From: Rubrivivax sp.
GTDB lineage: Bacteria; Pseudomonadota; Gammaproteobacteria; Burkholderiales; Burkholderiaceae_C
Reading direction: 5' to 3'
Length of the DNA stretch: 57,119 bases
NCBI GenBank assembly: GCA_020848515.1
Contig: JADLIA010000031.1
Location: 1 to 57,119, forward strand
Below the pieces are notes generated by a model. That model did not search any database, was not told the DNA's origin, and saw only the letters and a program-made list of their open reading frames with translations. This document shows, one piece after another, positions 5,111-46,908 of the stretch (the first letter of the stretch is position 1; every line of letters begins with the position of its first letter). The position numbers and the translations under genes are program-made.

Positions 5111-5166
5111 GCTATTAGTTTGATAGCTGCTGGCGCTTGCTGGTATTGCGCTAGAGCCCGATTTTT
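5111..5166 (+). repeat. Interspersed double-hairpin element, copy 1
   Basis: GCTATTAGTTTGATAGCTGCTGGCGCTTGCTGGTATTGCGCTAGAGCCCGATTTT; 1 bp after DUF1330 stop. Confidence 0.9.
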
Positions 5167-5192
5167 ATTGAAACTTTCGGAAAAGGAAAACC

Positions 5193-6479
5193 ATGAGTGC
5201 CATCGTTGACATCGTCGGCCGCGAAGTGCTGGACAGCCGCGGCAACCCCACCGTCGAGTGCGACGTGCTGCTGGAGTCGGGCGTGATGGGCCGCGCCGCC
5301 GTGCCCAGCGGCGCTTCCACCGGCTCGCGCGAAGCCATCGAGCTGCGCGACGGCGACAAGAAGCGCTACCTGGGCAAGGGCGTGCTCAAGGCGGTCGAGC
5401 ACATCAACACCGAAATCTCCGAGGCCGTGCTGGGCCTGGACGCGGCCGAACAGGCCTTTCTGGACAAGACCCTGATCGATCTGGATGGCACCGACAACAA
5501 GTCCCGCCTGGGCGCCAACGCCCTGCTGGCGGTGTCGATGGCGGTGGCGCGCGCGGCGGCTGAAGAATCCGGCCTGCCGCTGTACCGCTACTTCGGCGGC
5601 ATGAACGGCTGCCAGCTCCCCGTGCCGATGATGAACGTCATCAACGGCGGCGCACACGCCAACAACAACCTGGACCTGCAGGAATTCATGATCATCCCGG
5701 TCGGCGCGCCCAGTTTCCGCGAAGCGCTGCGCTGGGGCGCCGAGGTGTTCCACGCGCTCAAGAAGATCATCCACGACAAGGGCATGAGCGTGGCGGTGGG
5801 CGACGAAGGCGGCTTTGCCCCCAACGTCGAGAACCACGAGGCCGCCATCCAGCTGATCCTGCAGGCCATCCAGGACGCCGGCTACACCGCCGGCCAGGAC
5901 ATCGTGCTGGGCCTGGACTGCGCCAGCAGCGAGTTCTTCAAGGACGGCCAGTACGTGCTCGATGGCGAAGGCGGCCTGAAACTGAGCGCCGCGCAATGGA
6001 CCGACATGCTGGCCACCTGGGTCGACAAATACCCCATCATCAGCATCGAAGACGGCATGGCCGAGGGCGACTGGGACGGCTGGAAGCTGCTCACCGAGCG
6101 CCTGGGCGACAAGGTGCAGCTGGTGGGCGACGACCTGTTCGTCACCAACACCAAAATCCTCAAGGAAGGCATCGACAAGGGCATCGCCAACTCGATCCTC
6201 ATCAAGATCAACCAGATCGGCACCCTGACCGAGACTTTCGACGCCATCGAGATGGCCAAGCGCGCCGGCTACACCGCCGTCATCAGCCACCGCTCGGGCG
6301 AGACCGAGGACTCGACCATCGCCGACATCGCGGTCGGCCTGAACGCGGGCCAGATCAAGACCGGCTCGCTGTCGCGCTCGGACCGCATGGCCAAGTACAA
6401 CCAGCTGCTGCGCATCGAAGAAGATCTGGGCGACATGGCCAGGTACCCCGGGCGCGCCGCTTTCTACAACCTGAAGTGA
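5193..6479 (+). CDS. eno: Phosphopyruvate hydratase (enolase)
   Basis: [30 protein letters not shown]...[19 protein letters not shown]. Confidence 0.98.
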
Positions 6480-6549
6480 TGCGGCGCGCTGCGGCACGTC
6501 GGCGGGTCGGCATGGCCTGCGTCCTGGCAGCGTGCCGGCGCGGTTCGGA

Positions 6550-6600
6550 GCTATACTAAAAAGATAGCAACGAATCCGCTTGCACCCTGCGCCTGCTGCC
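6550..6600 (+). repeat. Degenerate element copy upstream of ftsB
   Basis: GCTATACTAAAAAGATAGCAACGAATCCGCTTGCACCCTGCGCC. Confidence 0.45.
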
Positions 6601-6879
6601 ATGACCTCCCGCGTCGTCCCGGCCATCCTGCTGCTCCTGCTGGTCGTCATCCACGCCCAGCTGTGGGTTGGGCGCGGCAGCCTGCCCAACGTGTCGGCGC
6701 TGCAACGCAAGCTGGATCAGCAACGCAGCGCCAACCAGCAGGCGCGGCTGGTCAACGAGCAGCTGGCGTCCGAGGTCGAAGACCTGCGCGCCGGGCTGGG
6801 CATGGTCGAGGAACGCGCCCGCATCGAGCTGGGCATGGTCAAGCCCAACGAAATCTTCGTGCAGGTGGCGCCGCGCTGA
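6601..6879 (+). CDS. ftsB: Cell division protein FtsB
   Basis: Small TM plus coiled-coil protein downstream of eno: MTSRVVPAILLLLLVVIHAQLWVGRGSLPNVSALQRKLDQQRSANQQARLVNEQL...EERARIELGMVKPNEIFVQV. Confidence 0.92.
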   Translation: MTSRVVPAILLLLLVVIHAQLWVGRGSLPNVSALQRKLDQQRSANQQARLVNEQLASEVEDLRAGLGMVEERARIELGMVKPNEIFVQVAPR

Positions 6880-6910
6880 CGATGAGCGCCTGCGGCCAGC
6901 GTGGCCAGGT

Positions 6911-44604: not shown

Positions 44605-44615
44605 CGGCGTGGCGC

Positions 44616-45044
44616 TTACTCGATGGTCAGGCGCTGCGAGCCACTGACCTGCTTCTTGGGCAGGGTGAGCGTCAGCACGCCGTTGTCGTACCTGGCCTTG
44701 GCGGCGCTCTGGTCGATGTCCTGGGGCAGCTGGAAGCTGCGCGCCACGGCACCGTAGTAGCGCTCGCTGCGCAGCACGCGCTCGCCGCTGGACTGGCTGT
44801 CCTGCTGCTTGATTTCGGCGCGCACCGTCACCACGCTGCCGTCGATCGAGACGTGAATGTCGTCCTTGCCGACGCCGGGCACTTCGGCCTCGACGGTGTA
44901 GGTGCCGTTGTTTTCCTTCACGTCGATGCGGATCTGCGCCGCCGTCGGCAGCGGATCGCCATGCAGCGGCTTGACGAAGAAGCCGGGCGCGAAGTCGTTG
45001 AAGAAGTCATCGAAGAGTCGGCTGCGAACGATGGGGTTGGCCAT
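44616..45044 (-). CDS. Hsp20/alpha-crystallin family small heat-shock protein
   Basis: [44 protein letters not shown]...[34 protein letters not shown]. Confidence 0.95.
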
Positions 45045-45097
45045 GTGAATCTCCTTTCGGTGGATGCGATGAAGGGTTGAAACCTCCCTTGCTCAGC

Positions 45098-45125
45098 AGG
45101 TGTGAACGGCGCGCCCGATTTCAAG
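45098..45125 (-). promoter_or_regulatory. Candidate sigma-32-type promoter for hsp20 (CTTGAAA -35)
   Basis: Minus strand CCCTTGAAATCGGGCGCGCCGTTCACACCT upstream of hsp20; -35 matches consensus, -10 poor. Confidence 0.35.
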
Positions 45126-45241
45126 GGTGCCGCGCCGGTGCTGGCGGCGGCGCCGGCGCCGGTCGCCAAAGCATGGGAAAATGCGTCTCCTGTTGCCCCG
45201 CGCCATCGCGCGCCGCGGGCCCCACGCTCTTCCCACAACCC

Positions 45242-46147
45242 ATGTCGTCTTCCCTGCACCCCATGCTCAACGTGGCCATCCGGGCCGCGCGCGCCGCTGG
45301 CGCCATCATCAACCGCGCCGCGCTCGACGTCGAGGCCGTGCGCATCTCGCAGAAGCAGGTCAACGACTTCGTCACCGAAGTCGATCACGCCAGCGAAGAC
45401 GCCATCATCGACACCCTGCTGCACGCCTACCCCGGCCACGGCATCCATGCCGAGGAATCGGGCACCACGCGCGGCAACCCCCAGTCCGACCATGTCTGGA
45501 TCATCGATCCGCTGGACGGCACCACCAACTTCATCCACGGCTTTCCGGTCTACTGCGTCAGCATCGCGCTGGCGGTCAAGGGCCGCATCGAGCAGGCCGT
45601 CATCTACGACCCCACGCGCAACGACCTGTTCACCGCCACGCGCGGGCGCGGCGCCTTCCTGAACGACCGGCGCATCCGCGTCAGCAAGCGCACGCGCCTG
45701 CCCGAGTGCCTGATCTCCACCGGCTTTCCGTACCGCAAGGGCGACGACTTCCAGGGCTATCTGCGCATGATGGCCGACGTGATGCAGCGCACCGCCGGCC
45801 TGCGCCGCCCCGGCGCCGCCGCGCTCGACCTGGCCTACGTGGCGGCCGGTCACACCGACGGTTTCTTCGAGACCGGCCTCAAACCCTGGGACCTGGCCGC
45901 CGGCAGCCTGCTGATCACCGAAGCGGGCGGTCTGATCGGCAACTTCAGCGGCGAAGCCGGCTTTCTGGAGCAAGGCGAATGCCTGGCCGGCAACCCGCGC
46001 GTGTTCGCCCAGCTGGTGCAGCTGCTGCGCCCGCATTCGCGCTTCGACGGCGCGCCGCAGCCCAGCGGCGAGCAGCGCGCGCCCCTGAGCCTGCGCAAGA
46101 CCGACGAAGCGGCCCAGCCCGCCACCACCCCACCCCTGCAGCCGTGA
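45242..46147 (+). CDS. suhB: Inositol monophosphatase family protein (SuhB)
   Basis: [67 protein letters not shown]...[25 protein letters not shown]. Confidence 0.95.
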
Positions 46148-46908
46148 CGGCCCACCCTCCGGACGCCGCCGGCCCGGCGGCGCAGGCCGGCGCCGACGTG
46201 ACGCACCCGCGCGCCATCCGCAGCTTCGTCACGCGCGCCGGCCGCACCACCCGCGGCCAGGCCCGCGCGCTGGCCGAGCTGGGGCCGCGCTTTGTCCTGC
46301 CCTACGACCAGAATGTTCCTGATTTGATAGCTTCCTGCGCAAGCCAGACAAGCGCCGGAGGCCAAAAATATCAGAAAGCGGTGCTGGAGATCGGTTTTGG
46401 CATGGGCCATGCCACGGCGCACATCGCGGCGCTCATGCCGGACACCCTGTTCATCGGCTGCGAAGTGCATGAAGCGGGCGTCGGCGCGCTGCTCAAGCTG
46501 ATCGGTGAGCAGGGTCTGGACAACATCCGCATCGTGCCGCACGACGCCGTGCAGGTGCTGCGCCACATGATCGCGCCCGGCACGCTGGACGGCATCCACA
46601 TCTTCTTTCCCGACCCCTGGCACAAGACGCGCCACCACAAGCGCCGCCTGATCCAGCCGCCCTTCGTGCGCGAGCTGGCCGAGCGCCTGCGGCCGGGCGG
46701 CCAGCTGCATCTGGCCACCGACTGGCAGCCCTACGCCGAGCAGATGCTGGCCGTGCTGAGCGCCGAGCCGCTGCTGGTCAACACCGCCGACGGCTATGCA
46801 CCGCGCCCGGACTATCGGCCGCAGACCAAGTTCGAGCGCCGCGGCCTGCGGCTGGGCCACGGCGTGTGGGACCTGGTGTTCCGGCGCCGGCTGGCCGAGA
46901 TGGCGTGA
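46144..46908 (+). CDS. trmB: tRNA (guanine-N7-)-methyltransferase (carries in-frame element copy)
   Basis: [60 protein letters not shown]...[21 protein letters not shown]. Confidence 0.93.
46315..46370 (+). repeat. Interspersed double-hairpin element, copy 11, inside trmB
   Basis: GTTCCTGATTTGATAGCTTCCTGCGCAAGCCAGACAAGCGCCGGAGGCCAAAAATA; encodes [19 protein letters not shown]. Confidence 0.85.

What the first reader, a model, noticed from the sequence alone, without database searches (positions are those of the whole stretch)
5111..46370. Dense family of ~55 bp double-hairpin interspersed elements, ~11 clear copies in 57 kb
Aligning by eye the copies at 5111, 8467(-), 10389, 16284, 19306, 26884(-), 32283, 37054(-), 38229(-), 40878 and 46315 gives a common layout: GCTAT-N6-7-ATAGCT (hairpin 1), gcTGGCGCttg-N~8-GCGC(t/c) (hairpin 2), then gGAGCC-cgATTTt. 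Copies have diverged in loops and kept compensated stems, and occur in both orientations. They have no coding capacity and are not clustered, so they look like a non-autonomous REP/MITE-like family. I do not recall a named family with this consensus, but cannot exclude that it is catalogued.
Basis: partly seen in the sequence, partly recalled or inferred. Interest (0 to 1): 0.85.

Follow-up and report, generated by a model that had tools for sequence, protein, structure and literature searches.

The report
Chromosome-wide 65-bp DNA signal in Comamonadaceae
About one copy every 4 kb of a ~65-bp DNA motif stays at fixed places in Ottowia chromosomes, including inside essential genes, and appears to have been written into existing sequence rather than inserted, so it behaves more like a maintained DNA signal (as uptake signal sequences are) than like a jumping repeat.

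Summary
The 11 copies are real. A profile built from them finds ~104 copies in 427 kb of this Ottowia genome and none in shuffles. The core occurs ~446 times in the 2.48-Mb draft (12 in the reversed control). Within the sampled order it is confined to one family and patchy there; two fragments of it were listed in 2017 as unexplained motifs in Polaromonas and Acidovorax. The REP/MITE reading does not fit. No covariation supports the stems. No two copies exceed 79% identity. Y1 transposases do not track the element. No intergenic gap holds two copies. Orientation is unbiased. At 14 of 15 comparable loci a sister species keeps the copy, with the core conserved far better than the flanks. About a fifth of copies lie fully inside genes (mutL, miaA, trmB and hemD in the window), almost all in two harmless reading frames, with little or no added length; in recN the motif replaced 50 bp of conserved coding sequence without any indel. 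Copies are scarce in low-GC, foreign-looking DNA. Best reading: a double-stranded DNA signal maintained in place by a sequence-specific reader, mechanistically closest to DNA uptake sequences. Reader and benefit are unproven. Main rival: an ancient, now immobile, partly domesticated repeat.

The parts
5111..5174 (+). element copy, intergenic between a DUF1330 gene and eno; same place in ~10 Ottowia species
8456..8519 (-). element copy between convergent gene ends (8452+ / 8524-, phosphate transporter); shared with sister species G316
10389..10452 (+). element copy between two minus-strand genes (HPPK domain / PhoU-like); shared with G316
16284..16347 (+). element copy between convergent genes; shared with G316
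19306..19369 (+). element copy inside hemD (18786-19562, minus strand), antisense to the gene; shared with G316
26874..26937 (-). element copy between two minus-strand genes
32283..32346 (+). element copy between convergent genes
37044..37107 (-). element copy between a plus-strand gene end and mutL
38225..38288 (-). element copy inside mutL (37168-38967), in the linker between the N- and C-terminal domains; same place and frame in 5 Ottowia genomes
40878..40941 (+). element copy inside miaA (40314-41291), sense, frame [12 protein letters not shown]; adds 0-12 nt relative to element-free homologues
46315..46378 (+). element copy inside trmB (46144-46908), sense, at the junction before the methyltransferase domain; homologous place used in Ottowia and Rhodoferax
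20925..20996 (+). possible eroded twelfth copy below threshold, orthologous to a scored copy in G316

Best explanation
The element is a long (about 50-66 bp) double-stranded DNA signal, not a mobile hairpin. SHOWN: copies sit at fixed orthologous places; their core (AGCT at model 15-18, GCGC at 23-26) is conserved far better than their surroundings; copies do not descend from one another recently; inside genes they take the two reading frames that give harmless Ala/Gly/Ser- or Ala/Pro-rich peptides, with little or no added length; in recN a copy arose by substitution alone over a segment that was already a better-than-average match; they keep at least ~430 bp apart and are scarce in low-GC, foreign-looking DNA. 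INFERRED: a sequence-specific protein reads the site as duplex DNA (no strand preference, no covariation, near-dyad layout). The known mechanism that best produces this set of traits is biased DNA uptake in natural transformation (uptake signal sequences). A chromosome-organising protein would be the alternative reader.
For: In-situ origin: the recN segment is 126 nt in Ottowia and in 24 of 28 element-free homologues (the other four are one codon shorter, upstream of the element). Over the element, Ottowia is only 55-57% identical to the family consensus (others mean 85%, minimum 73%), while the rest of the segment is as similar as in the others. The homologous segment in element-free genomes already ranks in the top ~3% (median) of positions by motif score. 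Other in-gene copies: miaA 0 to +12 nt, moaC +6 to +12, truB +12, tilS +12 to +18, selB up to +18, cca +21, trmB +24 to +36, rimO about +36; none ~66. Frame bias: 53 of 63 in-gene copies in 2 of 6 frames. Stasis and selection: 14 of 15 comparable copies shared with G316; identity core 93%, secondary core 82%, rest of element 69%, flanking intergenic 48%. No family structure: pairwise identity close to column-shuffled, maximum 0.79. No strand preference: tandem 43/42, in-gene 24/22, replication 36/50 p=0.16. Spacing: 0 of 369 gaps with two copies, 18.4 expected; 4 distances under 500 bp against 20.9; 10-kb counts under-dispersed in own genome (index 0.49, p=0.0002). Core-genome bias: low-GC bins of G316 hold 0.14 copies against 2.40. 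Genus 'dialects': Rhodoferax GGGC, Polaromonas CAAAAG forms.
Against: The motif carries ~57 bits, far more than the ~13 bits needed to mark 800 sites in 3 Mb and, from general knowledge, well over known uptake sequences, so independent point-mutational origin of every site is demanding. No competence gene was found to track the element: ComEC is nearly universal in the family, and one element-rich genome (G321, 197 matches) has ComEC broken into three frames. Natural transformation in Ottowia is not documented here. Zero-indel replacement is shown for one gene only; other genes gained 6-36 nt, and trimming after insertion is possible. The 93% core identity is measured on pairs found with the same profile. 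The trmB tree does not exclude one origin. Under-dispersion is significant in one of three genomes.
Confidence: 0.42

Rival explanations
1. An ancient non-autonomous mobile repeat (REP/MITE-like) spread through the ancestor of these genera, lost its transposase, and its copies are now immobile and partly domesticated. In-gene copies were inserted in loops and later trimmed to near-original length.
For: A 57-bit, ~66-bp shared sequence is most simply spread by copying. High copy number, both orientations, 3'-end and convergent preference, avoidance of divergent (promoter) gaps (36 of 62 against 10 of 91) and patchiness among genera are usual for REP-like families. Short insertions are present in several genes (rimO about +36, trmB +24-36).
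Against: No pair above 79% identity in three genomes. No copy of ~66 added nt in any of the nine genes checked. recN has no indel over the element in 28 comparisons. No clusters or inverted pairs. Y1/RAYT genes do not track copy number (24 of 28 element-rich against 88 of 123 other genomes, p=0.15) and are absent from some element-rich genomes; RAYT loci are not flanked by the element. Stems do not covary.
Confidence: 0.33
2. A chromosome-organisation site: a nucleoid-associated or condensin/gyrase-type protein binds the near-dyad duplex every ~4 kb, as gyrase and IHF bind some BIME/REP elements. The sites were selected in place.
For: Minimum distance between copies, no strand preference, placement at convergent 3' ends where positive supercoils meet, core conservation at orthologous loci.
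Against: Selection on any one of ~800 architectural sites should be too weak to override conserved RecN residues (TPRPVGKVA to APRAIERVA). Many close relatives, including a congener (G304), lack it or nearly so. Depletion in foreign-looking DNA is not specifically predicted.
Confidence: 0.13
3. An RNA-level device: transcription terminator, mRNA-stabilising double hairpin or structured RNA.
For: GC-rich hairpin 2 followed by ATTTT; folding energy below mononucleotide shuffles; convergent enrichment.
Against: No orientation bias relative to transcription (43/42 tandem, 24/22 in genes). No covariation. Folding energy not significantly below column-independent resampling (p=0.10). No Rfam match. 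About half of the copies in genes are antisense.
Confidence: 0.07

Closest known systems
ATAGCT(N)22CAAAAG of Polaromonas naphthalenivorans CJ2 and GCTTAT(N)5AAGCG of Acidovorax ebreus TPSY (PMC5217627, Table 7)
   Same: Both fall in the element's register (model 13-18 plus 41-46; 25-30 plus 36-40). The published counts agree in kind: 101 intergenic, 18 in genes, 34 convergent (125 copies); 44 convergent, 4 divergent, 59 co-oriented (114 copies). The 20 GCTTAT(N)5AAGCG matches in loci held here carry element features in one orientation or the other (by inspection).
   Different: Published as isolated motif pairs with no recognition that they are one ~66-bp element, no taxon survey, no in-gene, orthology or in-situ analysis, no mechanism. 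The copies in those two genomes were not read here.
DNA uptake sequences (DUS, Neisseriaceae) and uptake signal sequences (USS, Pasteurellaceae)
   Same: Hundreds of copies, both strands, intergenic 3'-end enrichment plus in-gene copies in few reading frames, dialects between genera, depletion in foreign DNA, origin in place (PMC3630211 and PMC1626085 found and not read in full; other traits from general knowledge).
   Different: Here ~66 bp and ~57 bits against ~10-30 bp; lower density; no receptor or competence phenotype known; different family.
REP / BIME / REPIN with RAYT (TnpA-REP) (PMC2817692, PMC3733652, PMC3116915)
   Same: High copy number, short, partly palindromic, mostly extragenic, near gene ends, often convergent.
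   Different: No covarying palindrome, no clusters, no near-identical copies, no RAYT linkage, about a fifth of copies fully inside genes. PMC3733652 and PMC6006769 do not mention this family's genera searched for.
Rickettsia palindromic elements
   Same: Repeat found in-frame inside protein genes (general knowledge; one search found only secondary sources).
   Different: Those are, to my knowledge, clean insertions of a whole unit; here copies add 0-36 nt and are not covarying palindromes.
Beta-proteobacterial repeat element BRE (PMC3110155)
   Same: Short repeat in Bordetella and Comamonadaceae, some copies within coding sequence.
   Different: ~90 bp, 1-29 copies per genome, tandem arrays, VNTR behaviour.

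Membership tests
REP/RAYT system | Palindrome maintained as hairpin (compensatory changes) | tested here: not met
REP/RAYT system | REPs flanking a RAYT gene, or RAYT presence tracking REP number | tested here: not met
   own draft has no Y1_Tnp (draft 77% complete); 24/28 against 88/123, p=0.15; loci L078-L096 carry no flanking pairs
REP/RAYT system | Pairs or clusters (BIME, REPIN) | tested here: not met
   0 of 369 intergenic gaps with two copies, 18.4 expected
REP/RAYT system | High copy number, extragenic, near gene ends | tested here: met
   but 46 of 217 copies lie inside genes and 32 overlap gene ends
MITE | Terminal inverted repeats and target-site duplication; presence/absence as a unit | tested here: inconclusive
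   no convincing empty site with the whole unit missing in 15 comparable loci; in-gene copies never add ~66 nt. TSDs could not be sought without recent insertions
MITE | Near-identical recent copies | tested here: not met
   maximum pairwise identity 0.79; a different repeat in the same genome does show near-identical copies
Uptake signal (DUS/USS) | High-density dispersed motif, both strands, no transcription or replication orientation bias | tested here: met
Uptake signal (DUS/USS) | Sites arise in place by mutation, not insertion | tested here: inconclusive
   met without indel in recN; short gains of 6-36 nt in other genes
Uptake signal (DUS/USS) | Depletion in recently acquired DNA | tested here: met
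   G316 low-GC bins 0.14 against 2.40 copies; rho 0.51 and 0.35 in two genomes, weaker (p=0.10) in G313; low GC is only a proxy
Uptake signal (DUS/USS) | Preferential uptake and transformation of motif-bearing DNA; cognate receptor | not testable with these tools
   ComEC present in 95 of 101 family genomes, uninformative
Structured RNA / terminator | Orientation with transcription, covariation | tested here: not met

The most novel reading that the evidence does not exclude
Comamonadaceae carry an independent, third lineage of self-DNA recognition signal: a ~60-bp duplex motif, far longer than DUS or USS, with genus dialects, driven into intergenic and coding DNA in situ, strongly enough to change conserved residues of RecN.
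Probability: 0.28. Interest if true: 0.9.

Novelty: new variant of a known kind. Interest (0 to 1): 0.72.

Why it matters
If the in-situ reading holds, a whole bacterial family carries an unnoticed genome-wide DNA signal that reshapes core proteins (RecN, MutL, MiaA, TrmB, HemD), and its reader is unknown. DUS and USS are, to my knowledge, the only established genome-wide uptake signals; a third, much longer one would test how such signals evolve. If it is instead an ancient repeat, it is a case of hundreds of immobile copies held by selection, including in-frame inside core genes. Either way it would explain two motifs on record as unexplained since 2017.

Tried and rejected
Covariation by mutual information, pair counts and shuffles: none. 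Rfam at gathering thresholds: no match. RAYT partner: PF01797 absent in own draft, common everywhere in the family, not flanked by the element. Replication-strand orientation in a complete congener: no clear bias, 36/50. ComEC as a phylogenetic marker: near-universal, uninformative. Empty-site search with sister species G316 for ends and target duplications: no true empty site found; the one 'absent' locus is not a convincing orthologue. Own gene caller first locked onto shadow frames and was retrained with a prior. trmB tree to decide between one and several origins: three changes on the tree, one origin not excluded. Literature strings of the consensus: no hits. The ABC transporter copy (L204) could not be judged against solved structures.
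Full report
WHAT IS THERE. The 11 copies were aligned and used as a profile. All are recovered, and iteration gives ~104 non-overlapping copies in 427 kb of own genome, with no hits at E<0.01 in dinucleotide-shuffled or reversed sequence. The core pattern occurs 446 times against 12 for its reversed control in the 2.48-Mb, 77%-complete draft, so a full genome should hold roughly 800 (extrapolated). Position by position the conserved span is ~66 bp: (aat)RCTAYnAWTTnRATAGCT-KYKGCGC-ttGCYgGnCaaGCGC-YRGaGcCnnATTTtgAtnC..AA, with T3, AGC (15-17) and GCGC (23-26) nearly invariant. 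The genus is Ottowia: sister genome G302 has a contig of the same length (4,008,472 bp) as O. beijingensis NZ_JACCKX010000001.1.

STRUCTURE. The two hairpins can be drawn on the consensus, but nothing maintains them. In 181 copies no stem pair exceeds its shuffled expectation by two standard deviations and the strongest column couplings are not stem pairs. Folding energy is not significantly better than for sequences resampled column by column (p=0.10), though it is better than mononucleotide shuffles. Rhodoferax copies replace the 3' GCGC with GGGC without a matching 5' change. What is conserved is a sequence profile with rough dyad symmetry about model position 32, which suggests duplex recognition (inference).

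WHO HAS IT. In 300 genomes of the order only this family shows counts above control. Of 151 family genomes, ~28 carry 20 to 730 matches and most of the rest are at background. Named carriers by locus reading are Ottowia, Acidovorax, Giesbergeria, Comamonas, Polaromonas and Rhodoferax. Congeners also differ: in sampled 60-kb stretches G304 has 3 hits against 22 in G313.

WHERE IT SITS. In own genome (104 copies) and G313 (113 copies) together: 85 between co-directional genes (43 same strand, 42 opposite), 43 convergent, 9 divergent, 46 fully inside genes (24 same, 22 opposite), 32 overlapping gene ends, 2 at edges. 36 of 62 convergent gaps carry one against 10 of 91 divergent gaps (p=6e-10). 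Gene calls are from a script of mine and are approximate, above all at start codons. No gap of 369 holds two copies, 18.4 expected, and the smallest distance between neighbours was 430 bp. Low-GC bins, a proxy for acquired DNA, are nearly empty in G316 (0.14 against 2.40 copies per 10 kb); the trend is also significant in own genome but not in G313.

INSIDE GENES. Four window copies lie in hemD, mutL, miaA and trmB. Of 63 in-gene copies, 53 use two of six frames: sense frame 0 (...ATDSIAAGADxASAGGQ...) and antisense frame 2 (...LAPAxQAPAAIExIA...) (p=1e-16; stop codons in other frames contribute). A ~66-bp insertion should add ~22 residues. In the genes checked it does not. RecN of two Ottowia species carries the motif in a segment of the same length as in 24 of 28 element-free homologues; the other four are one codon shorter, upstream of the element. 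Identity to the family consensus falls to 55-57% over the element (others mean 85%, minimum 73%) and is unchanged beside it; the encoded residues change from TPRPVGKVA to APRAIERVA. Element-free relatives already show an above-average match at that place, median top 3% of positions in the locus; these relatives are not independent samples. Other genes gained little: miaA 0 to +12 nt, moaC +6 to +12, truB +12, tilS +12 to +18, selB up to +18, cca +21, rimO about +36, trmB +24 to +36. In trmB the homologous place is filled in Ottowia and in Rhodoferax and not in ~70 other Burkholderiales; the tree needs three changes but does not exclude one origin.

HOW OLD AND HOW CONSTRAINED. No two copies within own genome, G316 or G313 exceed 79% identity, and the identity distribution is close to column-shuffled, with only a slight excess of similar pairs. 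Of 15 own copies with both flanks comparable in G316, 14 are present there; the remaining locus is not a convincing orthologue. Identity over these pairs: core 93%, secondary core 82%, other element positions 69%, adjacent intergenic 48%. The eno-upstream copy is found in ~10 Ottowia species and the mutL copy in five genomes. This is purifying selection, or continual renewal, at fixed sites. Ascertainment by the profile raises the core figure somewhat, but recovering 14 of 15 limits that bias.

MECHANISM. A REP or MITE family should show at least one of recent near-identical copies, whole-unit insertions, clusters, or a linked transposase. None is seen. An RNA device should have orientation and covariation; it has neither. 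What remains is a duplex DNA signal read by a protein. Duplex reading, the protein and the benefit are inferred. Uptake sequences are the known system with the same list of traits: both strands, in-gene frame preference, origin in place, spacing, dialects, scarcity in foreign DNA. The length and information content (~57 bits) are beyond that class and are the strongest argument for the rival of an ancient spread by copying. ComEC is near-universal and does not help.

PRIOR KNOWLEDGE. No paper in the library held contains the consensus strings tried. PMC5217627 (2017) lists ATAGCT(N)22CAAAAG in P. naphthalenivorans and GCTTAT(N)5AAGCG in A. ebreus among 'potential novel motifs', with placement counts that match ours in kind, and reports R. 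ferrireducens as the genome with most motif pairs. I judge both motifs to be fragments of this element from their register; the copies in those genomes were not read. BRE (PMC3110155) is a different, ~90-bp tandem-forming repeat by its description.

VERDICT. Observation largely right, stems not supported, interpretation replaced. Interest comes from in-situ origin in conserved coding sequence and strict spacing. The uptake mechanism is a proposal with clear tests.

Noticed in passing
window 49784-49818 and 29 other places in the draft: A second repeat family, GGCAGTTGACCGCTTGNCAACNTCGGGCAGACCGC, 30 copies with up to 3 mismatches and none in the reversed control; copies are nearly identical, so it looks recently mobile, unlike the element.
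   Followed up: partly
window 50723-50820: Inverted repeat with 37-nt arms, 89% complementary, 24 nt apart, near the second repeat family.
   Followed up: no
window 40007-40094: ARAGORN calls a tRNA-Thr inside an MFS transporter ORF (39134-40336); Rfam finds no tRNA there, so probably a false positive.
   Followed up: partly
G313:C1 (e.g. L097): About 15-20 matches of an IS200-type Y1 transposase, several split into two frames, in an element-rich congener.
   Followed up: no
G321:C1:1836740-1837544: ComEC matched in three frame-shifted pieces in an element-rich genome (197 element matches): a pseudogene or an assembly error.
   Followed up: no
L024:1478-3619: One 714-aa gene carries three element copies in three places.
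   Followed up: no
L038 upstream of eno (Ottowia G300): A different palindromic repeat (ATTCCCGCGCAGGCGGGAATCCAG type) sits where other Ottowia species have the element.
   Followed up: no
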